A stretch of DNA of 64,000 nucleotides from Robiginitomaculum sp. (GTDB lineage Bacteria; Pseudomonadota; Alphaproteobacteria; Caulobacterales; Maricaulaceae). Every line of letters begins with the position of its first letter. The stretch's first letter is position 1. Location: the NCBI GenBank assembly GCA_021776515.1, contig JAJFFS010000008.1, positions 124,001 to 188,000 on the forward strand, given 5' to 3'. The notes beneath the pieces are model-generated. The model did no database searches. It was not told where the DNA came from and saw only the letters and a list, made by a program, of their open reading frames with translations. Position numbers and translations under genes: made by a program. This document shows positions 31,378 through 64,000 of the stretch, one piece after another.

Positions 31378-31974
31378 ATGACCAATAGAGGCCGCGCCAA
31401 CGATACATCGCAGACGATTATAAACGGAACGCTTTCTGCAATGGCAGATGAGAGTATATCCAACCTGACCACAAAATCTATTAGCAAGAAGGCCGGCGTT
31501 TCTACTGCTGCAATTCACTATTTTTTTGAAACAAAAGAAAAATTGATTTATCATTCATTTGTTTTTGTCATCAGAAGTATACGCCGAGAAATGCTTCGGG
31601 TGAGAAAGGCTGAAAAAGACCCCATCGATCGGGTAAGAGAAGCCATAAGAGTGCATTTCAGCTCAACCCATTTATCCCAGGAAGCCGCCAGTATCTGGCC
31701 ACAACTATGGGTATATTCCACATATCACGCGGAAACAGCTCGCCTTTTTAAGGTTTTTGGCGCCCGTATGATTTCTAATTTCACCTATGATCTATGTCAG
31801 GCTGGCCTTAGCCGTCGTAAGGCCCGCTCGGCGGCGATAAAAATACGGGCCTTAATTATTGGTCTTTGGGTTGAAAAACAAATTTCAAAAAACGTAAGCC
31901 CGGGTGAGTGCTGGAAAATTTTTGATACACTTTTAATGGATCTGACTGCTGAAGCAGAAAAAAGCACTGCTTAG
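31378..31974 (+). CDS. TetR-family regulator, BetI-like
   Basis: A 198-residue repressor. The N-terminal HTH is TTKSISKKAGVSTAAIHYFF followed by ETKEKLIYHSF. The ligand-binding domain resembles BetI (WPQLWVYSTYHAETARLFKV, IRALIIGLWVEKQIS). BetI senses choline and controls betaine genes. Here the regulator lies 35 bases upstream of demethylation genes, so the ligand may be betaine, dimethylglycine or choline. It probably controls itself and the downstream operon through the palindrome at 31247. The Shine-Dalgarno is weak. Confidence 0.83.
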   Translation: MTNRGRANDTSQTIINGTLSAMADESISNLTTKSISKKAGVSTAAIHYFFETKEKLIYHSFVFVIRSIRREMLRVRKAEKDPIDRVREAIRVHFSSTHLSQEAASIWPQLWVYSTYHAETARLFKVFGARMISNFTYDLCQAGLSRRKARSAAIKIRALIIGLWVEKQISKNVSPGECWKIFDTLLMDLTAEAEKSTA

Positions 31975-32009
31975 TCAAACGGTAAAACCACCATACAAGG
32001 AAGTCTGTA

Positions 32010-34475: not shown

Positions 34476-34484
34476 GGGCTGTGA

Positions 34485-35738: not shown

Positions 35739-35749
35739 GGGGTGGGGTC

Positions 35750-36064
35750 ATGCTTTTAATTCGGTGTCCGTATTGCGAAGAAGACCGGCCAGAGGTCGAG
35801 TTTTCTTATGCCGGTGAAGCCCATATTGTGCGTCCCGTAGATCCATCCCTGATGGATGATGCGGCCTGGGCAGAATATTTGTTTGTGCGTGATAATGCGC
35901 GGGGCAGACATTACGAGCGCTGGTATCATATTTACGGCTGTGCGCGGTTTTTTAATGCGGTACGTGACACCGTCAGTGATAAATTTTCAATGACCTACAA
36001 AATGGGTCAGCCCCGGCCAACGGACGCAGAAATTACGGAGGCCAACAATGACGGGCTTTCGTAA
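35750..36064 (+). CDS. soxD: Sarcosine oxidase subunit delta
   Basis: The small zinc-binding subunit, 104 residues. Zinc ligands are visible in the N-terminal IRCPYCEEDRPEVEFSY and in the YGCARFFNAVRDTVS segment. It overlaps the start of soxA by 17 bases, and the usual order B-D-A-G is kept. It has a structural role in the sarcosine oxidase complex. Confidence 0.95.
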   Translation: MLLIRCPYCEEDRPEVEFSYAGEAHIVRPVDPSLMDDAAWAEYLFVRDNARGRHYERWYHIYGCARFFNAVRDTVSDKFSMTYKMGQPRPTDAEITEANNDGLS

Positions 36065-40042: not shown

Positions 40043-40048
40043 CGTATT

Positions 40049-42046: not shown

Positions 42047-42078
42047 AGATATCGACAACCTGTGATAATAATTAAAAA

Positions 42079-42108
42079 AGAAGGCGTTCCGATAGTGGAA
42101 CGCCTTCT
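42079..42108 (-). terminator. Rho-independent terminator of the TonB receptor gene
   Basis: AGAAGGCGTTCC and GGAACGCCTTCT form a perfect 12-bp stem with a 6-base loop. On the minus strand it is followed by TTTTTTAATT. It lies 34 bases after the stop of the TonB receptor gene and separates it from the sulfotransferase gene. Confidence 0.95.
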
Positions 42109-42141
42109 AAATTTAGTCAATTAAAACGAAGAATGACTGAC

Positions 42142-44634: not shown

Positions 44635-44662
44635 AAAAATTTCCCCGGGGCTATTTTGCAAC

Positions 44663-44680: not shown

Positions 44681-44757
44681 CCCATAATCGCTCACCCCAT
44701 ATTTGTCAATAATTTATAGAAAGACCAGAATGTTTTGCCAAAAAATAAGTCTGACTG

Positions 44758-49472: not shown

Positions 49473-49481
49473 ATCACCATC

Positions 49482-51182
49482 ATGACAATAGACACATTAC
49501 CTGCGCCTGGCGCACCCGATATTGATATTGCCCGGGCGGCAACGATGCAGCCCATTCTGTCTTTGGCCAAGGATCGTCTGGATGTCCCGCCAGAAGCACT
49601 GGTGCCTTACGGGCATCACAAAGCCAAGCTTTCGCTGGACTATATCAAGTCTATTCAGGGTCGCCCCAAGGGCAAGCTGGTTTTGGTCACCGCCGTGACG
49701 CCTACACCAGCCGGTGAAGGCAAAACCACGACCAGTGTTGGTTTGAATGATGGCCTGAATAAAATCGGGGTTAAGTCCATGGTCTGCCTGCGCGAGCCAT
49801 CACTTGGCCCCTGCTTTGGTATGAAGGGCGGTGCCGCGGGCGGTGGCCGGGCACAAGTTATCCCGATGGAGGACATAAACCTTCACTTTAATGGTGATTT
49901 TCACGCCATTACCGCAGCTCATAGCCTGCTGTCTGCCATGCTGGATAATCACCTCCATTGGGGGAATGAGCTGGGTATTGACCCACGCCAGGTCAGCTGG
50001 CGCCGGGTTGTGGACATGAATGACCGGGCCTTGCGCAATATTGTTGTGGGCCTTGGTGGTCCGGTTCACGGTATACCCCGCGAGAACGGCTTTGACATCA
50101 CAGTTGCCTCTGAAATCATGGCGATTTTCTGCCTGGCAACAGATATGGCCGACCTGCAACGTCGGCTTGGTGACATTATTGTTGCACGCACCCACGATAA
50201 AACGCCGGTTACGGCGCGCGATCTTGGTGCCGATGGTGCTATGGCGGTTTTACTCAAAGATGCGCTACAGCCTAATCTGGTTCAAAGTATCGAACATAAT
50301 CTGGCCTTCATCCATGGTGGCCCGTTTGCCAATATTGCCCATGGTTGCAACAGTGTTATGGCCACAAGCACGGCGCTGTCGCTATGCGATGTGGTGGTAA
50401 CCGAGGCTGGCTTTGGTGCAGACCTTGGCGCTGAGAAATTTCTCGACATTAAGTGCCGCCAGTCTGGTTTGCGCCCGGATGCCATCGTTCTGGTGTGCAC
50501 CATACGGGCAATGAAAATGCAGGGCGGTGTTGCCAAAGATGCCCTTGGCGCCTCAAACCCAGAGGCTGTGGAGCGCGGTTGTGTCAATCTGGTTCGCCAC
50601 ATTGAGAATATGAAAACCGTGGGCGTAACGCCAGTTATTGCCCTCAATCATTTTATTGCCGACACACAAGATGAGATCGCTGTTATTGAGCGCATTTGTG
50701 CCGAACAGGGTGTCTCTATGGCCGTGTCAAAACATTGGGCAGAAGGCGGTGCCGGTGCCGAAGATCTGGCCAGGGCCGTGATGAAGCAAATTGAAAATGG
50801 CTCTCCCGAGATCACGCTTCTCTATGAGAACGAAGAAAGCTTGCAAGATAAAATCGAAGCTGTGGCCAGCAAATTTTATCGCGCTGGTGATGTCTCCATT
50901 AGCGGCCCTGCCGCCAAAAGTTTGGCCGAAATTGAGGCGTTAGGGTTTGGCCATTTGCCGGTTTGCATTGCTAAAACTCCGTACAGCTTCTCATCTGACC
51001 CGGCCCTTAGTGGTGCGCCGGAGGGACATACACTGGAAGTACGCGAGGTAAGGCTTTCCGCCGGGGCCGGGTTTGTGGTGGCCGTTTGCGGTACCATCAT
51101 GACCATGCCGGGCCTGCCCAGAAAACCGTCGGCATTGAATATCGGCCTGGATGAAGACGGGCAAATCGTCGGGCTGTCTTAA
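49482..51182 (+). CDS. fhs: Formate-tetrahydrofolate ligase
   Basis: A 566-residue enzyme that interconverts formate + THF + ATP and 10-formyl-THF + ADP + Pi. The P-loop-like [39 protein letters not shown] and [18 protein letters not shown] are diagnostic. Together with folD and the formate dehydrogenase genes downstream it would run in the formate-releasing, ATP-forming direction when methyl groups are oxidised. It heads the plus-strand cluster. The long Shine-Dalgarno spacing and upstream hairpins suggest translational control. Confidence 0.96.
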
Positions 51183-51204
51183 GCCTGAGATGCAGGAGTG
51201 AATT

Positions 51205-51891
51205 ATGAGTGACGAAGAAGACATCATCCTCAGGGATTTGAATGATAATGACCTGGTCGATCAGATCAAGGATGACCTTTATGACGGTCTCAAGGATGAA
51301 GTGTTTGAGGGTGTTGAAATTCTCCTTGAGCGCAAGTGGGAAGCAAACCTCATACTGAGCGACGTGCTTGTCGAGGCTATGCGCATCGTTGGCATCGACT
51401 TTCGTGACGGTATTTTATTTGTACCTGAGGTACTGCAATGTGCCGGTGCCATGAAGGGCGGCATGGGTCAGCTTCGCCCGATACTGGCCGCCAGTGATGC
51501 ACAGACCAGCGTTGGCAAGTTCGTCATTGGTACTGTGAAAGGGGATATCCACGATATTGGTAAAAATCTGGTGGGTATGATGCTGGAAGGTGCCGGCTTT
51601 GAAGTGATCGATCTGGGTATCAATAACCCCGTTGAAAACTATCTGGCCGCCATAGATGAGCACAAGCCTGATATATTGGGCATGTCGGCACTTTTGACAA
51701 CAACCATGCCCTATATGGGCCTCGTGATTGAGGAATTGGACAAACGCAATATCTTAAAAGAACTGCCGGTTATGGTTGGCGGTGCACCGCTTAATCAGGA
51801 ATTTGCTGATGCCATCAATGCGCATTCTTACGGCCGCGATGCTGCTATGAGTGCCGAAATGGCCAGAACCATAATCGGCAAGAATTCCTGA
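51205..51891 (+). CDS. Methyltransferase cognate corrinoid protein
   Basis: A 228-residue cobalamin carrier of the MtgC/MttC/MtaC class. The N-terminal four-helix cap (about 15-100) is followed by the Rossmann B12 domain with the DxHxxG motif in KGDIHDIGKNLVG; His116 is the lower cobalt ligand. The GGAP loop (VMVGGAPLNQEFAD) is also present. It accepts a methyl from the MttB-family enzyme and donates it to the pterin-binding methyltransferase, both encoded in the same cluster. The extended acidic N-terminus is slightly unusual. Confidence 0.94.
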   Translation: MSDEEDIILRDLNDNDLVDQIKDDLYDGLKDEVFEGVEILLERKWEANLILSDVLVEAMRIVGIDFRDGILFVPEVLQCAGAMKGGMGQLRPILAASDAQTSVGKFVIGTVKGDIHDIGKNLVGMMLEGAGFEVIDLGINNPVENYLAAIDEHKPDILGMSALLTTTMPYMGLVIEELDKRNILKELPVMVGGAPLNQEFADAINAHSYGRDAAMSAEMARTIIGKNS

Positions 51892-51892
51892 C

Positions 51893-52579
51893 ATGTCCGC
51901 GCAGCGCCATAAATGCCTGATCATTGCCTGTGGCGCACTGGCAAAGGAAATCGTTTATTTGCGTCGTCATCTTGGCGTTGCTGATGAGGCGCTTACGCTA
52001 AAATGCTTGCCCGCTGAATTTCATAATACGCCGCAAAAAATTGCCCCGGGCGTAGAGGCTTTGCTTAAAGAGCATCGCAAGCACTATGATCGGGTGCTGG
52101 TCGCCTATGGTGAATGTGGAACCGGCGGTGCGCTGGATACCTTGTTAAAGCAATATGATGCCGAGCGGTTGCCCGGCGCGCATTGTTATGAATTTTTTGC
52201 CGGAGCCGCACAATTTGAACAGATTGTAGAGGCCGAAATCGGTAGTTTCTTTCTGACGGACTATCTTGTGAAAAACTTTGACCGTCTGGTCATCAAAGGG
52301 CTGGGGCTGGATCGCTATCCGGAGCTGACCAGTGTTTATTTTAACAATTATAAGCAAGTGGTTTATCTGGCTCAAAATGAAGATGAAGCCCTGAAACAAA
52401 AGGCTTTGGGTGCTGCCCGACAGCTCGATCTTGATTTTCTCTACAAAAGAGTGGGCTATGGCGACCTTGCGACAGAACTTGAAGCTTTCGTACAAGAAGA
52501 AGGGCTGTGTGGTTCTGCACATAAAGATCAGCAAACCCGGCAGCTGAAGACCAAGGATGAAGACCATGTATCATGCTAG
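51893..52579 (+). CDS. DUF1638 protein
   Basis: A 228-residue cytoplasmic protein starting one base after the corrinoid protein stop. DUF1638 proteins occur beside corrinoid methyltransferases in methanogens and other bacteria, but their function is not known. Cys and His residues are clustered in short motifs (IIACGALAKEI, KCLPAEFHNTP, YGECGTGG, GAHCYEFFAG) that could bind a metal or thiolate ligand. The MetV-like gene overlaps its 3' end by 14 bases. A role in cobalamin loading, corrinoid repair or methyl transfer is possible but unproven. Confidence 0.85.
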   Translation: MSAQRHKCLIIACGALAKEIVYLRRHLGVADEALTLKCLPAEFHNTPQKIAPGVEALLKEHRKHYDRVLVAYGECGTGGALDTLLKQYDAERLPGAHCYEFFAGAAQFEQIVEAEIGSFFLTDYLVKNFDRLVIKGLGLDRYPELTSVYFNNYKQVVYLAQNEDEALKQKALGAARQLDLDFLYKRVGYGDLATELEAFVQEEGLCGSAHKDQQTRQLKTKDEDHVSC

Positions 52580-53006
52580 GCTTTGGTCAAGCCGCCACTC
52601 ACGTGGCCTTGAGATTGTTTACAACGCTGTAAACCCTTCGCTTTTATCGGTTTTGCGTGGCGTTAGCAAACTATTTGGTCGCCGTTTTGACAAGCCGATT
52701 ACGGCACTGGAAAGTATGGCCAAGGGCTTTTTATTTGATTGTCAGATGTGTGGTGATTGCATCTTGTCCAAGACGGGTATGAGCTGCCCGATGAACTGTC
52801 CAAAAACCATTCGTAATGGTCCCTGCGGCGGCGTGCGGGCGAACGGCATGTGCGAGGTAAATCCCAACATGCGCTGTGTCTGGGTGGATGCCTGGAATGG
52901 CGCGGCGCAAATGAAAAATGGGGGGGCAATCAAGGATATTCAGTTTGCCGTAAACAATCAAAACCAAGGCACTTCGTCGTGGTTAAGAATGGTGCGTGAT
53001 GAGTAA
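52566..53006 (+). CDS. metV: MetV-like protein (methylene-THF reductase C-terminal domain)
   Basis: A 146-residue protein with the MTHFR_C domain and eight Cys in a short region: LFDCQMCGDCILSKTGMSC, PMNCPKTIRNGPCGG, ANGMCEVNPNMRCVW. In acetogens MetV pairs with MetF in a zinc- and sometimes iron-sulfur-containing reductase. ATG 52566 has AAGGA 7-8 bases upstream and overlaps the DUF1638 gene. The ATG at 52557 has no ribosome-binding site. It is followed at once by metF, so a MetVF complex is likely, here working in the oxidising direction. Confidence 0.87.
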   Translation: MYHARLWSSRHSRGLEIVYNAVNPSLLSVLRGVSKLFGRRFDKPITALESMAKGFLFDCQMCGDCILSKTGMSCPMNCPKTIRNGPCGGVRANGMCEVNPNMRCVWVDAWNGAAQMKNGGAIKDIQFAVNNQNQGTSSWLRMVRDE

Positions 53007-54030: not shown

Positions 54031-54064
54031 TTTTGGCGAATAGCCACTCACAAGGAAAATAAAA

Positions 54065-54961
54065 ATGACCAGAACCGTAATAAGCTCAGCCACAAAAGAG
54101 GTCGTCATAGGGTTTGACCAACCCTTTGTTATGATAGGCGAGCGTATCAATCCAACCGGTCGCAAAGTGCTGGCAGCACAAATGAAAGAGGGCGACTATT
54201 CAATGGTCGAACAAGACGCACTGGCGCAGGTTGCTGCCGGGGCGCAGGTTTTGGATGTGAATGCGGGTATTCCTCTGGCGGATGAGCCAAAAATTCTGGC
54301 AGAGGTGATCCAGCTGGTTCAATCCATAACGGATGTGCCGCTTTGTATCGACTCGTCAATAATTGGCGCACTGGAAGCGGGTCTGAAAGTTTATAAGGGC
54401 AAGGCCCTTGTTAATTCTACCACCGCAGAAGACGAGGTGATGGAACAGGTGTTACCACTGGTGAAAAAATACGGTGCGGCCATTGTTGCTATATCAAACG
54501 ATGACACCGGTATTTCAGAAGACCCGGACGAGCGTTTTGAAATTGCCAAGCGGATTGTAGAACGTGCCGCTGATCATGGCATTAAGTCTGAAGACGTTGT
54601 TGTTGATCCTCTGGTCATGCCTATCGGGGCCATCAGCACGGCGGGCCGGGATGTCTTTCATTTTATCCGCCGCCTCAAAACAGAGCTAAAAGTCAATACA
54701 ACGTGCGGGGCATCAAATATTGGTTTTGGTCTGCCTAACCGCCATGCCATTAACAACGCCTTCCTTCCCATGCTGGCCAGTGCCGGTATGACATCAGCAA
54801 TTTTGAACCCGTTGCATGAAGGGCTGGTCCCGGCGATCAAGGCTGCTGATATGCTGAACGGTGTTGATCCGCACTGTGCAAACTGGATTAAAACATATCG
54901 TCAGCCACCTGCCGAGGGCGAAGGAGGGCGACGCGGACGCAGGGGCAGACGCGGTGCATAA
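54065..54961 (+). CDS. mtgA: Methylcorrinoid:tetrahydrofolate methyltransferase (pterin-binding domain)
   Basis: A 298-residue TIM-barrel protein of the dihydropteroate-synthase/AcsE/MtgA class: MIGERINPTGRKVLAAQM, GAQVLDVNAGIPL, LCIDSSIIGALEAGL, NTTCGASNIGFGLPNR. It moves the methyl from the corrinoid protein to THF. It ends in an unusual tail, GGRRGRRGRRGA, absent from typical members. The AGG GGC codons of this tail also supply the Shine-Dalgarno of the next gene, whose GTG overlaps the stop. The gene symbol follows the MtgA role by analogy. Confidence 0.9.
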   Translation: MTRTVISSATKEVVIGFDQPFVMIGERINPTGRKVLAAQMKEGDYSMVEQDALAQVAAGAQVLDVNAGIPLADEPKILAEVIQLVQSITDVPLCIDSSIIGALEAGLKVYKGKALVNSTTAEDEVMEQVLPLVKKYGAAIVAISNDDTGISEDPDERFEIAKRIVERAADHGIKSEDVVVDPLVMPIGAISTAGRDVFHFIRRLKTELKVNTTCGASNIGFGLPNRHAINNAFLPMLASAGMTSAILNPLHEGLVPAIKAADMLNGVDPHCANWIKTYRQPPAEGEGGRRGRRGRRGA

Positions 54962-55358
54962 AGTTTACCATGGCAACTGTTTATGCGGCGAAGTAACGTT
55001 TGCTGCAGAAGGGGTTTCTGACATCTGGTATTGCCATTGTCATCAATGCCAGCACCTCACAGGATATGTTGTTGCCGCCGCTGGTGTTGATCAAAAAAAT
55101 CTGAGGTATGTAGGTGATATACGGTGGTCGCCGGTTTCTAGCCGCACAGATTCCGGGCATTGTGTGAAATGCAATAGTTTCATGTTCTGGAATAAAAAAG
55201 ATAGCCACTCGATCAGTATTCTCGTCGGTAACCTTGAAGACCCCACAGGGCTGGAGGTCAAGGGGCATGTTTTTGTTAGTGAAAAGCCGGATTACTATGA
55301 AATAGGTGATGACTTACCTCAATTTGAGCAATTCCCCGAAGGTGGTACTCGACAATGA
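54954..55358 (+). CDS. GFA-family zinc protein (glutathione-dependent formaldehyde-activating-like)
   Basis: A 134-residue CENP-V/GFA-domain protein. Zinc ligands are visible in GNCLCGEVTF, WYCHCHQCQHLTGY and SGHCVKCNSFMFW. The archetype Gfa was described as speeding formation of S-hydroxymethylglutathione from formaldehyde, although this function is debated for the family. Demethylases upstream can release formaldehyde, so detoxification or a C1-handling role fits. The GTG at 54954 has AGGGGCAG upstream. The frame opens earlier, inside the methyltransferase gene. It overlaps the next gene by 4 bases. Confidence 0.83.
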   Translation: MHKVYHGNCLCGEVTFAAEGVSDIWYCHCHQCQHLTGYVVAAAGVDQKNLRYVGDIRWSPVSSRTDSGHCVKCNSFMFWNKKDSHSISILVGNLEDPTGLEVKGHVFVSEKPDYYEIGDDLPQFEQFPEGGTRQ

Positions 55359-57310
55359 ATGCTGTGCCTTCACATACGGTGTTGTTCACCCCATCAGGCA
55401 TTCGCACTGAAACCAATGAGGGTGAAAGCCTTTATGACAGTGCGTTGCGTGCCGGGGTTGATCTGCGCTCTATCTGTGGTGGCAAGGGGCTTTGCAAACG
55501 CTGTCAGGTAAAGCTTTCACCCGGTAAGCATGCTAAGTTTAAGGTTGATGTTTTGGAAACCCATTTGGGCAGGCTAACGCCAACAGAGAAAAAGGCTATG
55601 GCTGAGGGGGAGCTAACCGAAGACCGGCGCCTTGCTTGCCGGGCAAAAGTATATGGTGATGTGGTGGTGGACGTACCCGATGACAGCCGGGAGCATGAAA
55701 CCAGCATTTCCAAAAAAAGCACGCAAATCACCACAGACATCAACCCGTCCGTAAAATTGTATATGTGCAGGCTGGCGGTTCCCAGCCTGGAAGATAATCC
55801 CAGTGATGCCGAGGCACTAAGCCATGCCCTTGAAGGGTTTGGTGTACATGCCAAAGCCGTGCACAGTGTACTGGTGAAATTGCAAAGTGTTCTGGCGCAA
55901 AATGAGCGTTCGCTAATAGCTGTTGTGCGCGATGGTCACCAGGTCATTGATGTTTGGCCGCCCTCTGCCTCTGATGTTTATGGGGCCGCGATCGACATCG
56001 GTTCAACCTCGGTTGCGCTTTATGTTTATAATTTGGCAAACGGCACTTTGGTTTACGAAAAGGCGGCGATGAACCCCCAAATTCGCTTTGGCGAAGACCT
56101 GATGAGCCGGGTTTCTTACATCATGATGAATAAGGGCGGCGAGCACAAACTAACCGCCGCCATTCAGGAACAAATGGCTATCATGCTTAAAGAGGCTGTT
56201 GCTGCGCTTGAGATCAAGCCTGAACAATTGCTTGAAGTTACGGCTGTCGGCAATCCGATCATGCACCATTTGTTTTTGGGCCTGTCTCCGGTTGAGCTTG
56301 GCCAGGCACCCTTCACCCTGACCGTTAAGGACTGGGTGGATGTGTCGGCGCGGAAGCTTGATCTTGGCTTGTCTGAGGAGGCGCGCATTTCTTTCCTGCC
56401 CTTGATCGGCGGGCATGTAGGCGCAGATACAACCGGGGCCTATCTTACACAAATCGATACGATGAAAGGCCGTTCGGTCTTGCTTGTGGATATTGGCACT
56501 AATGCTGAAATTGTATTGAGCCATAAGGGCCGTGTTGCTGCCGCCTCATCACCCACAGGCCCGGCTTTTGAGGGTGCCGAGATCAGCCACGGCGTGCGGG
56601 CCAGTATTGGTGCCATCGAACGGGTACGTATTGATGCGAACACCAAACAATCAAAGTTCAAAGTAATCGGCTATGATGAATGGCTCAGTGACCTCTCACC
56701 TGATTTTTCAACTCATAATATCACTGGCATTTGCGGGTCCGGTATTTTTGAGGTCATGGTTGAGTTGGCCAATGCGGGCCTTATCGACGAAAGCGGTTTA
56801 TTTGTACCGGATGCCGCCCCGGACCGGTTTATCAAAGATGGGAAAAGCTGGAAATATGTGCTGGCAAACAGGCCTGAAAACCCGATAACCATTAAGCAAA
56901 CCGATATTCGGGCGGTACAACTTGCCAAGGCTGCACTGAGCGCCGGGGTCAGTCTGTTGTCTGAATACCTTTCTTGCGATGCCTTTGACGAAGTGCTGCT
57001 GGCCGGTGCTTTTGGTACGCATCTTGATCCGCATTATGTGGTGCAGATTGGTATTATTCCGGGTGCTTCGGCTGAGAATACGCGTTCCATTGGCAATGCC
57101 GCTGGTATGGGGGCGGCTATGGCGCTTTTGAATGTTGATGAAAAAACGAAAATTATTGAGGCAGTCACGCACATAGAAAAGCTTGAAACGGCGATGGAGC
57201 CAAAATTTCAGGGCTATTTTGTTGGGGCTATGCGGTTTCCAACAGCCCCGGTGGCAAACCAGAAAAACAAAACACGGCGGCGACGGCGTAACACGCAGGA
57301 GAGATCATAA
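55355..57310 (+). CDS. RACo/RamA-like corrinoid activation protein (ASKHA, DUF4445)
   Basis: A 651-residue protein. The N-terminal ferredoxin-like domain has a [2Fe-2S] site (SICGGKGLCKRCQVKL and LACRAK). A linker and a C-terminal ASKHA ATPase domain follow (YGAAIDIGSTSVALYVYN, LLVDIGTNAEIVL, ITGICGSGIFEVMVEL, LLAGAFGTHLDP). RACo proteins use reductant and ATP to bring inactive Co(II) corrinoid back to Co(I). Inactivation would be frequent in an aerobe. The C-terminus ends KTRRRRRNTQERS, one of three Arg-rich tails in this cluster. The stop overlaps the next start (TAATG). Confidence 0.92.
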   Translation: MNAVPSHTVLFTPSGIRTETNEGESLYDSALRAGVDLRSICGGKGLCKRCQVKLSPGKHAKFKVDVLETHLGRLTPTEKKAMAEGELTEDRRLACRAKVYGDVVVDVPDDSREHETSISKKSTQITTDINPSVKLYMCRLAVPSLEDNPSDAEALSHALEGFGVHAKAVHSVLVKLQSVLAQNERSLIAVVRDGHQVIDVWPPSASDVYGAAIDIGSTSVALYVYNLANGTLVYEKAAMNPQIRFGEDLMSRVSYIMMNKGGEHKLTAAIQEQMAIMLKEAVAALEIKPEQLLEVTAVGNPIMHHLFLGLSPVELGQAPFTLTVKDWVDVSARKLDLGLSEEARISFLPLIGGHVGADTTGAYLTQIDTMKGRSVLLVDIGTNAEIVLSHKGRVAAASSPTGPAFEGAEISHGVRASIGAIERVRIDANTKQSKFKVIGYDEWLSDLSPDFSTHNITGICGSGIFEVMVELANAGLIDESGLFVPDAAPDRFIKDGKSWKYVLANRPENPITIKQTDIRAVQLAKAALSAGVSLLSEYLSCDAFDEVLLAGAFGTHLDPHYVVQIGIIPGASAENTRSIGNAAGMGAAMALLNVDEKTKIIEAVTHIEKLETAMEPKFQGYFVGAMRFPTAPVANQKNKTRRRRRNTQERS

Positions 57311-58842
57311 TGTCACGAGAGCATAGACGAGGTGGACGTAGAGGCAGAGTGCAGGGCAAAGGGACTACGCCAAAGGCTGCGCCGTATATTGTTCGGAAAA
57401 TTCCGCCCTATGAGATATTAGGGGCCACCGATCTGGCACAGATAGAGCATAATGCCGACACCATCCTTGAAGACATTGGTGTAGACATAAAAGACGATCC
57501 GGAATCCATTGATATTTTTGTTGCCGCTGGTGCATCGGCTGATGGTGAACGGGTGCGTTTCCCGCGCGGCATGTGCCGGGAAATAATCCAGAAAAGTGCC
57601 CCGGAAATTTTTACGCAACACGCCCGTAACAAGGATAATAATGTCGTTATCGGCGGTAATAATACGGTGCTTGTACCGGCGTATGGCCCGCCTTTTATTT
57701 ACTCCCGCGAAGAGGGGCGACGCTATGCAAGGATTGAGGATTTCCGTAATTTTATAAAATTGGCCTACATGTCGCCAACCCTGCACCATTCTGGTGGTAC
57801 GGTATGCGAGCCGCTGGATCTGCCGGTCAATAAACGCCATTTTGATATGGTTTACAGCCATATCAAATATTCTGACAAAGCCTTTATGGGATCAGTTACA
57901 GCGCCTGAACGTGCCGAAGATTCTGTATCCATGGTCAAGATCGTTTTTGGCGAGGATTTTGTTGAAGACAATTGTGTGCTGGTCAATTTGATCAATGCCA
58001 ATTCGCCGCTCACTTTTGATTCTGTGATGCTGGGCGCACTTAAAGTTTATGCACGACATAATCAGGCCTCGATGGTGAGCCCGTTTATTGTGGCCGGTGC
58101 CATGTCGCCGGTTACCGTTGCTGCGGTTGCGGCGCAAAGTCTGGCCGAAGGCATGGTTGGTATGGCGCTGGCGCAACTCATTCGCCCAGGTGCGCCGGTT
58201 ATTTATGGTAATTTTGTCAGCTCCATGTCCATGCAGTCCGGTGCACCAACTTTTGGTACGCCCGAGGCTTCACAGGTAATCAATATTGGTGCGTCTTTGG
58301 CACGCAGACTGGGTGTACCATTTCGCAGTGGTGGCGGGTTTACGTCGTCAAAAGTTCCCGATGCACAGGCTGCTTATGAAGCCACCAATACATTGCAAGC
58401 CGGCTTGCTGGCTGGTGTAAACTTCATGCTCCACACCGCAGGCTGGCTGGAAGGTGGATTGGCCATGGGGTACGAAAAGTTTATCATGGATGCTGATCAG
58501 GCTGGCATGATGGCGGTTTATGCCAATGGCGTAGATATGTCGGAGAACGGGCAGGCGCTTGATGCCATTAGGGAGGTTGGTCCGGGCAAGCATTTTCTGG
58601 GATGTGCCCACACGCAAGCCAACTTCAAATCGGCATTCTACAGCTCTGCCATTGCCGATAATAACAGCTATGAACAATGGCAAGAAGACGGCGAACAGGA
58701 TGCCCAGATGCGGGCGGAGAAAATCTACAAACAAATGCTTGCTGATTACGCCCCCCCGGAATTAGACCCGGAACTGGATAAAAAGCTACTGAAATTCGTA
58801 GACGATAGAAAAAATAGTTTTGAGGATTCCAACATCAGCTAA
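57310..58842 (+). CDS. mtgB: MttB-family corrinoid methyltransferase, non-pyrrolysine (glycine betaine type)
   Basis: A 510-residue TIM-barrel methyltransferase of the trimethylamine methyltransferase superfamily: ADTILEDIGVDIKD, LHHSGGTVCEPLD, GAPVIYGNFVSSMSMQSGAP, RSGGGFTSSKVPDAQAAYE. The frame is uninterrupted by TAG, so it lacks pyrrolysine, as do MtgB, MtpB and MtcB, which use glycine betaine, proline betaine or carnitine. The nearby BCCT carrier, DMGDH-like enzyme and soxBDAG point to glycine betaine, giving dimethylglycine. The N-terminus is Arg/Gly-rich (REHRRGGRRGRVQGKG). GGAGAG precedes the ATG. The symbol is by inferred substrate. Confidence 0.87.
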   Translation: MSREHRRGGRRGRVQGKGTTPKAAPYIVRKIPPYEILGATDLAQIEHNADTILEDIGVDIKDDPESIDIFVAAGASADGERVRFPRGMCREIIQKSAPEIFTQHARNKDNNVVIGGNNTVLVPAYGPPFIYSREEGRRYARIEDFRNFIKLAYMSPTLHHSGGTVCEPLDLPVNKRHFDMVYSHIKYSDKAFMGSVTAPERAEDSVSMVKIVFGEDFVEDNCVLVNLINANSPLTFDSVMLGALKVYARHNQASMVSPFIVAGAMSPVTVAAVAAQSLAEGMVGMALAQLIRPGAPVIYGNFVSSMSMQSGAPTFGTPEASQVINIGASLARRLGVPFRSGGGFTSSKVPDAQAAYEATNTLQAGLLAGVNFMLHTAGWLEGGLAMGYEKFIMDADQAGMMAVYANGVDMSENGQALDAIREVGPGKHFLGCAHTQANFKSAFYSSAIADNNSYEQWQEDGEQDAQMRAEKIYKQMLADYAPPELDPELDKKLLKFVDDRKNSFEDSNIS

Positions 58843-58899
58843 CACCCCTTAACGAGATAATGGTCACAGGTAATGGGCCAAACTAAAGGAAACAAACAA

Positions 58900-59796
58900 A
58901 TGAGTGCAGAACTTATTGACGGTAAAGCCATTGCGGCATCACTGCGATCACGCCTTGCCGAGGCAGTCTCAAGTTTACAAGCGGCGCACGGACGCGCACC
59001 GGCTTTGGCCGTGGTGCTGGTTGGCGATGATCCCGCCAGTCAGGTTTATGTGCGCAACAAGGCCCGCCAGACCGAAGAGGTCGGCATGCGTTCCATCGAA
59101 CACCGTCTTGATGATGATACGCCTCAGGACGTTCTAGTTAATCTGGTGCAGACCTTGAACGCTGATCCGCTCATTGATGGCATACTGGTGCAATTGCCCT
59201 TGCCAGACCATCTTGATGAAGCGGCGGTTATTGAACAGATTGACCCGTCCAAGGATGTGGATGGCCTGACCGAGGCTAGCGCTGGGCGACTGGTGCTGGA
59301 CAAACCGGGTTTGCGGCCCTGCACCCCCACGGGTTGTGTAATTCTGGCGCGTGAAGTGCTGGGCGATTTAACCGGCAAATCCTGCGTCATAGTTGGCCGG
59401 TCAATTCTGGTTGGCAAGCCCGCCGCATTTTTGTTTCTTGAACAAAATTGCACCGTTACCATAGCCCATTCCCGCACGCAGGGTTTACCTGCCCTTTGCC
59501 GTGAGGCCGACATTCTGGTGGCCGCCGTTGGCCGCCCGATGATGGTTAAAGGTGATTGGATAAAACCGGGTGCCTGTGTTATTGATGTGGGTATAAACCG
59601 TATTGATGCGCCCGAGCGCGGGGAGGGTAAAACCCGCCTTGTGGGTGATGTGGATTTTGACGCAGGCAAGGACGTTGCCGGCGCTATAACCCCGGTGCCG
59701 GGTGGTGTTGGCCCAATGACTATCGCCTGCTTGCTTCGCAACACTGTACTGTCCGCTTGTGCGCGTGAAGGCTGGTCCGTACCGGAAGGTGTGTGA
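58900..59796 (+). CDS. folD: Methylene-THF dehydrogenase/methenyl-THF cyclohydrolase
   Basis: A 298-residue bifunctional enzyme that converts methylene-THF to 10-formyl-THF with NADP+ or NAD+. Seen: [15 protein letters not shown] (catalytic Lys region), [43 protein letters not shown] and [16 protein letters not shown]. The ATG at 58900 has AAAGGA 9 bases upstream. The frame also opens at 58873. It links methylene-THF from metF, DMGDH and SoxBDAG to fhs. The stop overlaps the fdsG start. Confidence 0.96.
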
Positions 59797-60269
59797 TGAC
59801 AAACATGACCCATTGGGATGACAATAAAGCCAAGGCGGTGATGACAAACAGTCATGCCCGGGGTGCACCCCTGACCGGGGCCTTGCGGGCGCTGGTTGAT
59901 GCCTTTGGTTATGTGGATGATGCGGCGATTGCCCCCCTCATGCAGACCTATGCGCGTAGCCGCGCCGAAGTTCTGGGCGTAATCTCATATTATGATGATT
60001 TTCGCCAATCTTCACCGGGGCGGCACGTCATTCGTCTTTGTCAGGCTGAAGCTTGTCAGGCCGTTGGTGCGCGGGAATTGACTGCCCATGTTTGTAAAAA
60101 AACCGGCCTTGCCCTGGGTGAAACCACGGGCGATGGCCAACTCACGCTGGAACCTGTCTATTGCCTCGGTCTTTGTGCCAACGGTCCGGCGGCCGATATT
60201 AACGGCAAACCTGCCGCGCATCTGGATGAAAAATCCATTGATGCCAAACTGGCGGAGATTACTAAATGA
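59796..60269 (+). CDS. fdsG: NAD-dependent formate dehydrogenase gamma subunit (NuoE-like)
   Basis: A 157-residue thioredoxin-like [2Fe-2S] protein. The four Cys are in RLCQAEACQAVGARE and VYCLGLCANGPA, as in NuoE. It relays electrons between the formate-oxidising subunit and the NADH site. ATG 59796 overlaps the folD stop (TGATG). Together with fdsB and fdsA it forms the soluble NAD-linked formate dehydrogenase operon. Confidence 0.9.
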   Translation: MTNMTHWDDNKAKAVMTNSHARGAPLTGALRALVDAFGYVDDAAIAPLMQTYARSRAEVLGVISYYDDFRQSSPGRHVIRLCQAEACQAVGARELTAHVCKKTGLALGETTGDGQLTLEPVYCLGLCANGPAADINGKPAAHLDEKSIDAKLAEITK

Positions 60270-60282
60270 GAGATTTTTCGTA

Positions 60283-60352
60283 CCTCATCCTGAGCTTGTC
60301 GAAGGATAAAATCATTAATGTCTCTCTCTGCTTCGACAAGCCCGGCATGAGG
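60283..60352. repeat. Palindromic repeat pair inside the fds operon
   Basis: CCTCATCCTGAGCTTGTCGA... and ...TTCGACAAGCCCGGCATGAG form a facing pair of the same repeat family as 21814-21884. The GAGGAG at its right end doubles as the Shine-Dalgarno for fdsB (ATG 60361). Confidence 0.8.
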
Positions 60353-60360
60353 AGAACATT

Positions 60361-61896
60361 ATGAACACACGCATTTTCATACCTGCCGACATGTTGGCCA
60401 TTGCTCTGGGTGCCAATGAAATTGCTGTTGCAATGGCGAGTGAGGCTAATGCACGGGGTGAAGCCATCGAGATTATCCGCAATGGTTCACGTGGCCTTTG
60501 TTGGGCAGAACCATTGGTGGAAGTGCAAACCGATACGGGCCGCATAGCCTATGGCAACATTACCATAAATGATGTTGGCGGTTTGTTTGATGCTGATTTC
60601 CTTAAAGGCGGTGCGCATGAAAAATGCCTCGGGGCAACAGAGGAAATACCTTTTTTGAAAGCGCAGGAACGCTTTATTTTCAAAACCTGCGGGCTATATG
60701 CCCCTTGCAATATAGTGGCCTATGAGGCTCATGGCGGGTTTGCAGGTCTACGCGCGGCTCTTGCCCTGTCATCAGAAAAAATCGTTGACGAGGTTCAGAC
60801 ATCTGGCCTTCGCGGGCGCGGCGGTGCCGGGTTTCCGGCGGCGATAAAATGGCGCACGGTTTTGGATGTCGATGTTTCGCAAAAATACGTGGTCTGCAAT
60901 GCTGATGAGGGCGATTCAGGCACCTTTGCCGACCGCCTGATTATGGAGGGCGACCCGTTTCGCCTGATCGAAGGCATGGTCATTGCCGGCCTGGCCACAG
61001 GGGCGCAAGAGGGCGTTGTTTATTTGCGCTCTGAATATCCCGTTGCAAAGCGGGTGCTGGAAACAGCCATTGAACGCGCAGAAGCGGCCGGATGGCTAGG
61101 CACCAATATTCAGGGTAGTGGCAAGGACTTTACCCTTGGCGTTTTTGTTGGTGGTGGTTCCTATGTGTGCGGCGAGGAAACCGCACTTCTGGAAAGTCTG
61201 GAGGGCAAGCGCGGCATTGTTCGTGTCAAACCCCCCATACCGGCGCTGGAGGGGCTGCACGGCAAACCCACGCTGATCAACAATGTGATTACTTTGTGCG
61301 CTGTGCCGGATATTCTTGCCAGGGGCGGCGCATGGCATGGCGCACTTGGCGTGGGCCGCTCCACCGGCACTTTGCCGTTTCAACTTGCTGGCGATGTAAA
61401 GTATGGCGGCTTGGTCGAGCTGCCCTTCGGGCGCTCATTACGCGAACTTGTTGAAGATTTTGGTGGCGGCACTCGTTCCGGCCTGTCTGTGAAAGCAATA
61501 CAGATCGGCGGGCCATTAGGGGCGTATCTGCCTCCTCATCTGTTCGATACACCGCTGGATTATGAGGCTATGGCAGCCTTGGGCGCGGGTGTGGGTCATG
61601 GCGGCATTGTGGTTTATAACGAGACCACAGATATGCGCCAGCAAGCCCGTTATGCGTTTGAGTTTTGCGCCCATGAAAGCTGCGGCAAATGTACGCCGTG
61701 CCGCATTGGCTCGGTTCGGGGGGCAGAGGTGCTGGCAGAAGATACACCAGACCTTCATCTTGTGGATGACCTTTGCGAAGTGATGATTGATGGCTCCGCC
61801 TGCGCCATGGGCGGTATGACGCCAGTGCCAGTGCAATCGGCCATCAAATACTTTGCCGATGACTTCGGTACGCCCCAGCGCGTCGCAGCGGAATAG
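60361..61896 (+). CDS. fdsB: NAD-dependent formate dehydrogenase beta subunit (NuoF-like)
   Basis: A 511-residue subunit with an N-terminal thioredoxin-like domain (about 1-120) and a NuoF-like core. The NADH/FMN site appears as GLRGRGGAGFPAAIKW, NADEGDSGTFADR and GGGSYVCGEETALLES. The [4Fe-4S] site is HESCGKCTPCRIGS with a further Cys in GSACAMGG. It passes electrons from formate oxidation to NAD+. The upstream ribosome-binding site is provided by a palindromic repeat. It is spaced 10 bases from fdsA. Confidence 0.95.
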   Translation: MNTRIFIPADMLAIALGANEIAVAMASEANARGEAIEIIRNGSRGLCWAEPLVEVQTDTGRIAYGNITINDVGGLFDADFLKGGAHEKCLGATEEIPFLKAQERFIFKTCGLYAPCNIVAYEAHGGFAGLRAALALSSEKIVDEVQTSGLRGRGGAGFPAAIKWRTVLDVDVSQKYVVCNADEGDSGTFADRLIMEGDPFRLIEGMVIAGLATGAQEGVVYLRSEYPVAKRVLETAIERAEAAGWLGTNIQGSGKDFTLGVFVGGGSYVCGEETALLESLEGKRGIVRVKPPIPALEGLHGKPTLINNVITLCAVPDILARGGAWHGALGVGRSTGTLPFQLAGDVKYGGLVELPFGRSLRELVEDFGGGTRSGLSVKAIQIGGPLGAYLPPHLFDTPLDYEAMAALGAGVGHGGIVVYNETTDMRQQARYAFEFCAHESCGKCTPCRIGSVRGAEVLAEDTPDLHLVDDLCEVMIDGSACAMGGMTPVPVQSAIKYFADDFGTPQRVAAE

Positions 61897-61906
61897 GAGA
61901 GGCCTT

Positions 61907-64000
61907 ATGGAAAAGCTGAACACTCAAGAGCCGCCTGCAAATACGGTAACTCTGAGCATTGATGGTATTGAGGTCAGTGTGCCGCAAGGCACTACGCTGA
62001 AACGTGCTGCCCGTATTATTGGCACTGACATACCTAGCCTGTGCGCTATCTCCAGCCTTAAACCCCTGGGGTCATGCCGACTATGTCTGGTGGAAATTGA
62101 AGGGCGGAAAGATACGCCGGCCTCCTGCACCACCCCGGTAAGGGAGGGCATGGTTGTTCACACGGAAACCACACGCCTGAACCGTCTGCGCAAAGGTGTG
62201 ATGGAACTCTATATTTCCGATCATCCGCTTGATTGCCTGACATGCGCCGCCAATGGCGATTGCGAGTTGCAGGACATGGCCGGGCGTGTTGGCCTGCGCG
62301 ATGTGCGTTATGGAATTGCGGGCGAAAACCATCTGGATAGCCCAAAAGACGAGAGCAATCCGTATTTCACTTTTGATCCGGCCAAATGTATTGTCTGTGC
62401 GCGCTGTGTACGGGCTTGTGACGAGGTGCAGGGCACACTGGCGCTCACCCTTGAAGGGCGCGGATTTGACAACAAGGTTAGCGCGGGCGGCACAAACTTT
62501 TTCGACAGCGAATGTGTTTCCTGCGGTGCTTGTGTTCAGGCCTGTCCAACCGCAACATTGATGGAAAACAGTGTCATAGAGCTGGGCGTGCCGGACCGGG
62601 TGGTCAAAACTACCTGTGCCTATTGCGGGGTTGGTTGTTCATTTCGCGCCGAGCTGAAGGGCAATACAGTTGTCCGCATGGTGCCGGATGAAGACGGCAA
62701 GGCCAATCATGGCCATTCCTGCGTCAAGGGCCGCTTTGCCTGGGGTTATGCCAACCACCCGGACCGCAAAACCAAACCCATGATCCGCGAGAGCATAGAC
62801 GATGACTGGCGCGAGGTTGGCTGGGATGAGGCCTTTGTTTTTGCCGCCAAACGCCTGAACGCTATCAAGAAAAAACACGGACCAAAATCCATTGGCGGAA
62901 TTACCTCCTCGCGTTGTACAAATGAGGAAGTATGGCTGGTACAAAAAACCATCCGTGCCGCCTTTGGCAATAACAATGTTGATACCTGCGCGCGGGTTTG
63001 TCATTCGCCCACAGGCTATGGCTTAAAGCAAACATTTGGCGAAAGTGCTGGCACGCAAAATTTTGATTCAGTGCGTGAAACAGACCTCATCATGGTCATT
63101 GGCGCGAACCCCACCGAAGCACATCCGGTATTTGGCTCGGCCATGAAGAAACGGCTGCGCGAAGGGGCAAAGCTGATTGTACTGGACCCACGTGCAATAG
63201 AGCTGGTCAGTGCGCCGCATATTCGTGCTGATTATCATTTGGCACTATTGCCTGGCACCAATGTAGCCATGGTCAATGCTTTTGCCTACGTCATCGTTAC
63301 CGAAGGTCTGGTTGATGAAGCCTTTGTAGCAGCGCGTTGTGACACGGCCTCGTTTAATGAATGGCGCAGTTTTGCCGCCAGCGCAGAAAACACCCCTGAA
63401 GCCGTTTCAAAAATAACCGGCGTACCGGCGGATGACATTCGTGCTGCCGCCAGGATTTATGCAACTACGCCCAATGCTGCCATTTATTATGGTCTGGGTG
63501 TGACCGAACATAGCCAGGGCTCGACCATGGTTATGGGCATGGCCAATCTGGCTATGGCAACAGGTAATATTGGTCGCGCGGGGGTTGGCGTGAACCCCAT
63601 GCGCGGTCAAAATAACGTGCAAGGCTCATGCGATATGGGTTCATTTCCTCATGAGTTTGCCGGTTATCGCCCGGTTAGCGATGACGTGACCCGCGCACAA
63701 TTTGAGGCGGATTGGGGCGTAACACTGGATGCGAAGCCGGGCCTGCGCATCCCCAATATGCTGGATGAAGCCTGCGCCGGAACGTTCAAGGGGCTTTATA
63801 TTCAAGGCGAGGATATTGCCCAGAGCGACCCCAATACCTTGCATGTGGAAAAGGCCTTGCGCGCTATGGAATGCGTGATTGTGCAGGACTTGTTTCTCAA
63901 TGAAACCGCACGCTTTGCCCATGTGTTTTTGCCTGGAACGTCGTTTCTTGAAAAAGACGGCACCTTCATCAATGCCGAGCGGCGTATCAATCGCGTTCGC
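61907..64000 (+). CDS. fdsA: NAD-dependent formate dehydrogenase alpha subunit, 3' end outside window
   Basis: 698 codons are present and the frame is open at the right edge. The family is about 920-960 residues. Order: NuoG-like N-terminus with [2Fe-2S] (LGSCRLCLVEIEG), a His/Cys cluster (SDHPLDCLTCAANGDCELQ), two [4Fe-4S] sites (CIVCARCVRACDEVQG, CVSCGACVQACPTATL) and the Mo/W-bisMGD catalytic domain with its own cluster (CAYCGVGC). The metal ligand is Cys365 next to His366 in CARVCHSPTGYG, so this is a selenium-free enzyme. It oxidises formate to CO2. ATG 61907 follows AGGAGAGG. Confidence 0.95.
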   Translation, partial: MEKLNTQEPPANTVTLSIDGIEVSVPQGTTLKRAARIIGTDIPSLCAISSLKPLGSCRLCLVEIEGRKDTPASCTTPVREGMVVHTETTRLNRLRKGVMELYISDHPLDCLTCAANGDCELQDMAGRVGLRDVRYGIAGENHLDSPKDESNPYFTFDPAKCIVCARCVRACDEVQGTLALTLEGRGFDNKVSAGGTNFFDSECVSCGACVQACPTATLMENSVIELGVPDRVVKTTCAYCGVGCSFRAELKGNTVVRMVPDEDGKANHGHSCVKGRFAWGYANHPDRKTKPMIRESIDDDWREVGWDEAFVFAAKRLNAIKKKHGPKSIGGITSSRCTNEEVWLVQKTIRAAFGNNNVDTCARVCHSPTGYGLKQTFGESAGTQNFDSVRETDLIMVIGANPTEAHPVFGSAMKKRLREGAKLIVLDPRAIELVSAPHIRADYHLALLPGTNVAMVNAFAYVIVTEGLVDEAFVAARCDTASFNEWRSFAASAENTPEAVSKITGVPADDIRAAARIYATTPNAAIYYGLGVTEHSQGSTMVMGMANLAMATGNIGRAGVGVNPMRGQNNVQGSCDMGSFPHEFAGYRPVSDDVTRAQFEADWGVTLDAKPGLRIPNMLDEACAGTFKGLYIQGEDIAQSDPNTLHVEKALRAMECVIVQDLFLNETARFAHVFLPGTSFLEKDGTFINAERRINRVR

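What the first reader, a model, noticed from the sequence alone, without database searches (positions are those of the whole stretch)
31378..64000. A joined-up betaine demethylation and C1-oxidation island mixing anaerobe-type and aerobe-type chemistry
Seen: BCCT transporter, BetI-like and GbdR-like regulators, DMGDH-like enzyme, soxBDAG, MttB-family methyltransferase, corrinoid protein, pterin methyltransferase, RACo-like activator, MetV/MetF, folD, fhs and formate dehydrogenase lie within 33 kb. Known: each family is established, but corrinoid MtgB-type systems are best studied in anaerobes, whereas DMGDH/Sox belongs to aerobes using BHMT or GbcAB for the first step; neither of those is in the window. 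Inference: all three methyl groups of glycine betaine could be taken to CO2 with the first step corrinoid-dependent.
Basis: partly seen in the sequence, partly recalled or inferred. Interest (0 to 1): 0.9.

Follow-up and report, generated by a model that had tools for sequence, protein, structure and literature searches.

The report
Betaine-eating operon with charged docking tails
A marine bacterium carries a known kind of vitamin-B12-based gene set for stripping methyl groups from glycine betaine, and its methyl-passing enzymes share positively charged tails, with a negatively charged one on the B12 protein, that may be how one shuttle finds all its partners.

Summary
The gene content is real. 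The host is a Robiginitomaculum/Hellea-type alphaproteobacterium. Its genome shows no BHMT, no MetE and no GbcA at the curated cut-off; its one Rieske oxygenase scores 154 of 670 bits. Corrinoid-dependent first demethylation is the best reading, but not new in kind: Mausz et al. (PNAS 2025, PMC12478193) showed it in aerobic Ruegeria with mtgC and mtgD mutants. Here MetH is present and MtgE absent, so the system looks purely catabolic.

What I did not find described is a set of matching charged tails. MtgC's presumed partners are Arg-rich at one end: MtgD 66/67, RACo 67/68, MtgE 22/22 (C-termini), MttB superfamily 151/153 (N-termini). MtgC starts strongly acidic in 71/71. Same-fold proteins outside this system lack tails: RACo beside unrelated corrinoid proteins 0/9, non-corrinoid homocysteine methyltransferases 0/6, MetH proteins or modules 0/21. 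I propose electrostatic docking tails on swappable modules. That they bind MtgC is inferred, not shown, and two control families are imperfect (MetV, GbdR).

The parts
31378..31974 (+). BetI-like TetR regulator
   Evidence: TIGR03384 118.7 bits (cut-off 201.3), so BetI-like, not BetI by the curated rule; PF13977
32010..34475 (+). dimethylglycine dehydrogenase-like FAD/GcvT enzyme
   Evidence: PF01266, PF16350, PF01571, PF08669
34485..39621 (+). soxB, soxD (35750-36064), soxA, soxG: heterotetrameric sarcosine oxidase
   Evidence: TIGR01373 707 bits, TIGR01372 1451 bits, both above cut-off; TIGR01375 122 bits (cut-off 144); PF04268, PF04267
39608..40042 (+). folB, dihydroneopterin aldolase
   Evidence: TIGR00525 74.8 bits (cut-off 72.15)
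45257..46843 (+). BCCT transporter
   Evidence: PF02028 544 bits; NF047988 473 bits (cut-off 650)
48238..49209 (-). GbdR-like AraC regulator, divergent from fhs-mtgC
   Evidence: NF052371 385 bits (cut-off 480); divergent neighbour in several relatives
49482..51182 (+). fhs, formate-tetrahydrofolate ligase
   Evidence: NF010030 882 bits, above cut-off
51205..51891 (+). mtgC, corrinoid protein
   Evidence: PF02607, PF02310; MtgC models 187 and 150 bits, below cut-offs of 370 and 310
51205..51243 (+). acidic N-terminal extension of MtgC (about residues 1-13)
   Evidence: first 30 residues carry -8 to -14 net charge in 71 of 71 distinct homologues at 60% identity or more; phmmer matches to 1y80 and 4jgi start at query residue 20
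51893..52579 (+). DUF1638 protein, B12 reactivation partner by analogy
   Evidence: PF07796; mutant phenotype in Phaeobacter (PMC5764234, passages)
52557..53006 (+). MetV-like, DUF5981
   Evidence: PF12225
52996..54030 (+). metF-type methylenetetrahydrofolate reductase (second copy; a canonical one lies by metH on C8)
   Evidence: PF02219; other copy
54065..54961 (+). mtgD, methyl-THF:corrinoid methyltransferase
   Evidence: PF00809; NF005719 368 bits, above cut-off
54899..54958 (+). Arg-rich C-terminal tail of MtgD (last 20 residues, 7 Arg)
   Evidence: 66 of 67 distinct homologues have at least 4 Arg in the last 20; Arg codons are mixed
54861..55358 (+). GFA-family protein; listed GTG start overlaps mtgD, true start probably later
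   Evidence: PF04828
55355..57310 (+). RACo/RamA-like corrinoid reductive activase
   Evidence: PF14574, PF17651, PF17650, PF00111
57248..57307 (+). Arg-rich C-terminal tail of RACo (last 20 residues, 6 Arg)
   Evidence: 67 of 68 distinct homologues; 9 of 9 RACo beside unrelated corrinoid proteins lack it
57310..58842 (+). mttB-family (mtgB) methyltransferase without pyrrolysine
   Evidence: PF06253 732 bits; model matches S. meliloti 4yyc (61% identity) and MtgB 9yce (46%)
57310..57369 (+). Arg-rich N-terminal tail of MttB (residues 1-20)
   Evidence: the only segment with pLDDT under 50; Arg-rich N-terminus in 151 of 153 distinct homologues
58873..59796 (+). folD
   Evidence: PF00763, PF02882; NF010785 460 bits, above cut-off
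59793..64000 (+). fdsG, fdsB, fdsA: NAD-linked Mo formate dehydrogenase; fdsA continues past the window
   Evidence: TIGR01591 885 bits on the continuation in L002, above cut-off; PF01257, PF01512

Best explanation
This is an aerobic glycine betaine catabolic island. BCCT takes betaine up, and the GbdR-like protein controls the operon. MttB (MtgB) moves the first methyl group to Co(I) on MtgC, and MtgD moves it on to tetrahydrofolate. MetF, probably with MetV, then FolD, Fhs and the NAD-linked formate dehydrogenase oxidise it to CO2. DMGDH and SoxBDAG release the other two methyl groups as methylene-THF or formaldehyde, leaving glycine. RACo, with DUF1638, returns Co(II) to Co(I). The modules find the single corrinoid shuttle through complementary charged tails: Arg-rich, flexible tails on MttB (N-terminus), MtgD, RACo and, in other genomes, MtgE (C-termini) dock on the acidic N-terminal extension of MtgC. 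Shown here: gene content, no BHMT, MetE or GbcA-grade gene found, and conservation and family-specificity of the tails. Inferred: the substrate, the flux, and that the tails bind MtgC. The metabolic part alone I would put at about 0.85; the figure below is for the metabolic part and the docking together.
For: Gene families. Own-genome searches: PF02574 hits only the split MetH, no MetE, one weak Rieske. Published mtgC and mtgD mutants of Ruegeria do not grow on betaine, with or without methionine (PMC12478193; no mtgB mutant in the parts read). The four betaine-contact residues proposed for D. hafniense MtgB by modelling (PMC6855144, passages) align with Y125, N229, R339 and H375, kept in 33 of 33 rows of A2 at 51% identity or more, window row included. 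Tails: MtgD 66/67, RACo 67/68, MtgE 22/22, MttB superfamily 151/153, MtgC acidic 71/71. Same-fold proteins outside this system: RACo 0/9, non-corrinoid homocysteine methyltransferases 0/6, MetH proteins or modules 0/21. MttB residues 1-20 predicted disordered. Arg codons mixed, so not a DNA repeat.
Against: No binding or growth test exists for the tails or this strain. The proposed betaine contacts are also kept in most distant MttB paralogues (N229, R339, H375 in 43 of 45 rows, Y125 in 36), and the aromatic residue at MtgB 353 aligns with Gly383, so they do not fix the substrate. The own genome has one Rieske oxygenase. MetV, thought not to touch the corrinoid, has an Arg-rich N-terminus in 33 of 46, and GbdR an Arg-rich C-terminus in 8 of 31. 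DUF1638, thought to act on the corrinoid, has no tail (4 of 54). Related sequences inflate the counts. The anaerobe comparison rests on a few solved structures and family models, not a genome survey.
Confidence: 0.55

Rival explanations
1. The pathway is as described, but the Arg-rich tails do not dock on MtgC. They bind RNA, nucleoid, anionic lipid or another protein, or only aid solubility or oligomerisation.
For: Arg-rich tails are generic polyanion binders (general knowledge). MetV also has an Arg-rich N-terminus in 33 of 46. The MttB N-terminal strands of Methanosarcina help build the oligomer (PMC9842639, passages).
Against: The tails are on the presumed partners of one protein and absent from same-fold proteins outside the system. 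That one protein has an acidic start that unrelated corrinoid proteins lack.
Confidence: 0.33
2. The MttB acts on another methylated compound (for example another betaine) and betaine demethylation is not its main job.
For: MttB paralogues with different substrates share one MtgC in Eubacterium (PMC12478193). Active-site residues are not diagnostic.
Against: GbdR, BCCT, DMGDH and Sox homologues here, and at least one of them in 60 of 80 loci. It is the only intact MttB match in the genome. The closest characterised enzyme by sequence and fold is MtgB.
Confidence: 0.15
3. The Rieske oxygenase on contig C6 makes the first, oxygen-dependent demethylation.
For: Its best NCBIfam match is GbcA and its best solved relative by sequence is carnitine monooxygenase.
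Against: 154 bits against a 670-bit GbcA cut-off, over the N-terminal half only. It sits beside a CrtO-like FAD protein, a dimethylargininase-like protein and a permease-like ORF; among ORFs of 200 aa or more in that 20-kb stretch I recognised no ferredoxin-type reductase, but profiled only three of them. G003 has the mttB island but no PF00848 match, while G002, G011 and G013 have a PF00848 protein and no MttB match.
Confidence: 0.07
4. The tails are an inherited remnant without function.
For: All proteins compared are related, so shared ancestry alone could give high counts.
Against: Composition is kept while tail length and sequence drift, with RACo down to 42% and MttB down to 24% identity. 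Tails sit at opposite ends in different families and are kept where the genes lie far apart, as in G141 and G414.
Confidence: 0.08

Closest known systems
MtgBCD(E) of Ruegeria pomeroyi and the split methionine synthase of Phaeobacter inhibens
   Same: Same modules (MttB-family, MtgC, MtgD, RamA-like, DUF1638, second MetF), aerobic marine host, DMG/sarcosine and C1 genes often co-located in marine relatives (PMC12478193; PMC5764234, passages)
   Different: Here a full split MetH is present and MtgE is absent, so no methionine role is expected; MetV and GFA genes sit in the operon. I did not look at the Ruegeria or Phaeobacter proteins themselves for tails; the PNAS main text contains none of the words arginine, tail or docking
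MtgBCA of Desulfitobacterium hafniense (anaerobe)
   Same: MttB fold and 46% identity to MtgB 9yce/2qne; same chemistry proposed
   Different: 9yce aligns from its residue 3 to window residue 31, so no N-terminal tail. The two MtgC models align from window residue 15. The THF methyltransferase here resembles MeTr (2yck), and MtgA entry 6SJ8 (named in PMC7154762, passages) is not among the entries printed for the 17 distinct sequences matched
MttB-MttC and MtaB-MtaC corrinoid complexes of methanogens
   Same: TIM-barrel methyltransferase plus small corrinoid protein; MtaC also uses an N-terminal addition for partner binding (PMC9842639, passages)
   Different: Recognition there is described as by folded surfaces (dimerisation loop with cap domain; an N-terminal domain in a groove), not by charged flexible tails
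RACo, solved structure 3zyy
   Same: Domain order Fer2, linker, middle, ASKHA
   Different: 3zyy has 11 residues after the last aligned position, the window protein 22, with an Arg run among them

Membership tests
Aerobic MtgBCD betaine demethylase (Mausz et al. 2025) | MttB-family protein, MtgC corrinoid protein and MtgD pterin methyltransferase together | tested here: met
Aerobic MtgBCD betaine demethylase (Mausz et al. 2025) | RamA-like activase and DUF1638 protein | tested here: met
Aerobic MtgBCD betaine demethylase (Mausz et al. 2025) | dual role in methionine synthesis through MtgE, usually with MetH lost | tested here: not met
   Only PF02574 hit is MetH's; MetH present as 394 + 887 aa. 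The paper reports 28 of 239 metH genomes that also have MtgBCD, so this does not exclude membership
Aerobic MtgBCD betaine demethylase (Mausz et al. 2025) | required for growth on glycine betaine | not testable with these tools
   needs a deletion mutant
D. hafniense-type MtgBCA | MtgA-type THF methyltransferase | tested here: not met
   Best solved relatives are MeTr 2yck/2yci; 6SJ8 not seen among the entries printed for 17 distinct sequences at E 1e-3; no direct comparison with MtgA was made
Glycine betaine monooxygenase GbcAB | GbcA at the curated cut-off | tested here: not met
   Single PF00848 protein scores 154 of 670 bits
Glycine betaine monooxygenase GbcAB | GbcB reductase | not tested
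   No genome search was made for GbcB
Betaine-homocysteine methyltransferase | PF02574 protein other than MetH | tested here: not met
   1 hit in own genome, part of split MetH
Pyrrolysine TMA methyltransferase MttB | in-frame UAG read as pyrrolysine | tested here: not met
   510-residue frame open without any stop; 252 bits against TIGR02369 cut-off 525
Docking-tail corrinoid system (proposed here) | Arg-rich tails on MttB, MtgD, RACo and acidic start on MtgC | tested here: met
Docking-tail corrinoid system (proposed here) | tails bind MtgC | not testable with these tools
   needs a binding assay; no complex prediction was available

The most novel reading that the evidence does not exclude
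Aerobic Pseudomonadota run corrinoid methyl transfer as a plug-in system. A single MtgC with an acidic leader recruits any module bearing an Arg-rich tail: several MttB paralogues for different methyl donors, MtgD for folate, MtgE for methionine and RACo for repair. The tail is the membership badge, which would let paralogues be added or lost freely. The multivalent charge pairing might also gather the modules into a metabolon that keeps Co(I) short-lived in oxic cells.
Probability: 0.5. Interest if true: 0.75.

Novelty: new variant of a known kind. Interest (0 to 1): 0.58.

Why it matters
Glycine betaine is a major marine osmolyte, and MtgBCD has been proposed as a major oceanic route for its breakdown (PMC12478193). 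How one corrinoid protein serves up to seven MttB-type proteins (number from that paper), a folate enzyme, a homocysteine enzyme and a reactivase is, as far as I could find, open. A tail code would answer it, give a sequence test for which proteins belong to the system, and can be tested by deleting 20 residues. It could also explain, as an inference, why these modules can be separate proteins without losing efficiency.

Tried and rejected
B12 synthesis genes and GbcB were not searched, because the 12 genome searches went to other questions. A survey of anaerobe genomes was not possible with one genome-contig scan; solved structures and family models stood in. The plasmid search showed, in the 60 of 196 rows listed, only names that I know as Pseudomonadota, so it gave no anaerobe control. 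No complex structure could be predicted (single chains only). Rfam (gathering threshold) and tRNA scans of the window found nothing.

Considered and rejected. A DNA-repeat or overlapping-gene artefact for the tails: Arg codons are mixed, and tails persist where GFA is not seen or genes are far apart. A GC artefact: the host is near 50% GC, and 28 of 414 proteins in 16 control groups reach 4 Arg in the last 20, against 155 of 157 for MtgD, RACo and MtgE (sums made by me). 101 of 888 background ORFs also reach 4 (ORFs chosen by length alone, many probably not genes), and 10 of 119 ORFs in own-genome stretches do, two of them MtgD and RACo. GbdR (8 of 31), MFS (2 of 8) and MetV (8 of 47 C-terminal, 33 of 46 N-terminal) are the worst controls.

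What the samples are. Searches used 13 of the 61 genomes. Searches used 22 genomes: 20 of the 54 MttB-positive ones plus G028 and G035. One search kept the best 80 of 366 relatives. Of the lower-identity MttB places I chose and fetched 40. In one search the hits before filtering were 111 MtgD, 88 RACo and 31 MtgE; dropped were incomplete C-termini, 60% query coverage or less, under 40% identity, and rows with identical ends, leaving 67, 68 and 22. In one search, 166 MttB hits gave 153 distinct and 100 MtgC hits gave 77, of which 6 were MetH pieces at 31-35% identity (charge -3 to +2) and 71 are counted. In one search, 31 MtgE, 35 MetH and 8 other PF02574 hits gave the 23, 21 and 6 rows listed; three of the 21 are whole-length MetH ends and some are one protein seen in two loci.

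Script errors: the ORF picker took antisense or neighbouring ORFs for many loci, and the four added queries were wrong ORFs; one search replaced both. N-terminal counts depend on a nearest-start rule that I chose. The two C-terminal exceptions (L268 MtgD, L088 RACo) are still basic near the end. The two N-terminal exceptions are L051, cut by its contig, and L227, with 3 Arg in the best 14 residues.
Full report
Observation. The window lies at G000:C19:124001-188000 in a 2.57-Mb assembly reported as 99.85% complete. G028:C1 likewise matches Hellea balneolensis (1236178). The host is thus an alphaproteobacterium of that family, probably marine; its own name was not given.

Distribution. MttB matches occur in 6 of 61 genomes searched among relatives, own included, and in 3 of the 18 genomes of its genus, one of those only 37% identical; they occur in 54 of 397 Pseudomonadota, own included. 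The nearest proteins after OFTM234 come from records named Alphaproteobacteria OFTM136, Emcibacter, Marinicaulis, Maritalea and Henriciella (83-86%), nearer than those named Hellea (76-81%; H. balneolensis is of the host's family). That suggests horizontal spread; I built no tree.

Is the first step corrinoid-dependent? In the own genome PF02574 (BHMT, MtgE, MetH homocysteine module) gives one hit, at C8. It is the N-terminal part of MetH, whose 887-aa remainder passes the MetH cut-offs next door. MetE (PF01717) gives none. PF00848 gives one 394-aa Rieske oxygenase on C6. It scores 154 bits against the 670-bit GbcA cut-off and sits beside CrtO-like, dimethylargininase-like and permease-like ORFs. 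G003 has the mttB island but no PF00848 match; G002, G011 and G013 have a PF00848 protein and no MttB match. So neither classical first step is recognisable, and the MttB route is the best candidate. GbcB was not searched.

Known precedent. Mausz et al. 2025 (PMC12478193; main text parts 1-4 of 6 read) show by proteomics and by mtgC and mtgD mutants that Ruegeria pomeroyi demethylates betaine through MtgBCD. They report such genes often near later demethylation genes in marine Alpha-, Gamma- and Deltaproteobacteria. Price et al. 2018 (PMC5764234; [quoted passage not shown] The island is therefore a member of a known kind. It differs in keeping MetH and lacking MtgE, which points to a purely catabolic role. 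Four proposed betaine contacts of D. hafniense MtgB (Y94, N199, R309, H345; PMC6855144, passages) map by the alignment, in my own count, to Y125, N229, R339 and H375; the aromatic 353 maps to Gly383. These residues are common in the superfamily and do not prove the substrate.

The tails. Reading the operon's translations, I noticed that MttB starts with an Arg-rich stretch, MtgD and RACo end with one, and MtgC starts acidic. In homologues from the fetched loci at least 4 Arg occur in the last 20 residues of 66 of 67 MtgD, 67 of 68 RACo and 22 of 22 MtgE proteins. 151 of 153 MttB-superfamily proteins have at least 4 Arg in a 14-residue stretch of their first 45, including 11 of 11 paralogues at 24-26% identity. 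MtgC homologues at 60% identity or more carry -8 to -14 in their first 30 residues in 71 of 71. How these samples were drawn and filtered is told under Tried and rejected.

Controls. Families in the same loci that are not expected to touch the corrinoid mostly lack C-terminal tails: MetF 1 of 50, Fhs 0 of 22, FolD 0 of 11, GFA 0 of 32, SoxB 0 of 16. GbdR (8 of 31) and MetV (8 of 47; N-terminus 33 of 46) are less clean. DUF1638 has none (4 of 54), although it is thought to act on the corrinoid. Same-fold tests are the strongest. Of PF02574 proteins, 23 of 23 MtgE-type end Arg-rich, 0 of 6 non-corrinoid methyltransferases do, and 0 of 21 MetH proteins or modules do. All 54 MttB-positive genomes among the 397 also have a RACo, and 10 more genomes have RACo without an MttB match (my comparison of the lists). 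In 9 of these 10 the RACo lies by a corrinoid protein only 24-34% like MtgC, and all 9 lack the tail. The tenth, G161, has MtgD and RACo next to each other, both with 9 Arg in the last 20; its MtgC was not looked for. Of the distinct complete RACo proteins in the 30 loci, 27 of 27 have the tail; these overlap with those. The 9 unrelated corrinoid proteins start with 0 to -6 over 30 residues, depending on the start chosen.

Structure. The MttB model has mean pLDDT 93, and its only segment under 50 is residues 1-20. The closest solved structure, S. meliloti 4yyc, has 525 residues in its sequence and 479 in the Foldseek entry. I take that as about 46 residues not seen in the crystal, tag possibly included. 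MtgB 9yce aligns from its residue 3. MtgC residues 1-4 are under 50, with a helix at 14-26 (mean pLDDT 80). MeTr 2yck ends 1 residue and RACo 3zyy 11 residues after their last aligned positions.

Reading. Complementary tails on one shuttle and its partner kinds, absent from same-fold proteins outside the system, fit electrostatic docking. That would let many MttB paralogues share one MtgC. The step from conservation to binding is inference, and Eubacterium, reported to share one MtgC among several MttB-type enzymes, was not tested for tails. I did not find the tails described: the PNAS main text has none of the words arginine, tail or docking, and no title or abstract start among the rows listed by my searches is about them (15 of 1,101; 62: 25 of 199; 67: no paper; 68: 15 of 409; 88: 12 of 181; 92: 8 of 43). 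Those lists are capped; subscription papers and preprints were not covered, and supplements were not read.

Verdict. Observation confirmed. Interpretation plausible and supported by genome absence data, but its novelty was overtaken in 2025. The charged tails are the part worth a specialist's time.

Noticed in passing
G000:C7:80328-80540 (L042 about 8329-8570): A 71-residue stretch 37% like the MttB C-terminus, with a stop inside the match: probably the remnant of a second MttB paralogue in the host genome.
   Followed up: partly
L040:5557-9140 (G000:C6): Rieske oxygenase, CrtO-like FAD protein and dimethylargininase-like gene in a row on the minus strand; possible methylated-arginine catabolism, a guess.
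   Followed up: partly
window:54861-55358: GFA-family gene inside the operon; seen in 27 of 46 MtgD-bearing GTDB loci. Role unknown, formaldehyde handling is a guess.
   Followed up: partly
window:52557-53006: MetV-like protein family with an Arg-rich N-terminus in 33 of 46 homologues; may mean MetV also joins the assembly, or that the control is poor.
   Followed up: no
G035:C13:15444-20346 (L049 from 15444): MttB paralogue (50%) followed by a DMGDH-like gene and PF02574 frames interrupted by a stop.
   Followed up: no
L055 (G036:C79) and L056 (G028:C2): Second mtgC copies next to RACo (and MtgD in L055), on other contigs than the main operon pieces; in G028 this RACo is the only one matched.
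   Followed up: no
window:40049-44685: TPR-sulfotransferase and TonB receptor pair between the sox and mtg parts; similar pairs lie near mttB in L058, L097, L100 and L108. Possibly osmolyte or B12 uptake, a guess.
   Followed up: no
window:24388-26046: A chaperonin-family protein of 552 aa, PF00118 274 bits, probably an ordinary GroEL.
   Followed up: no
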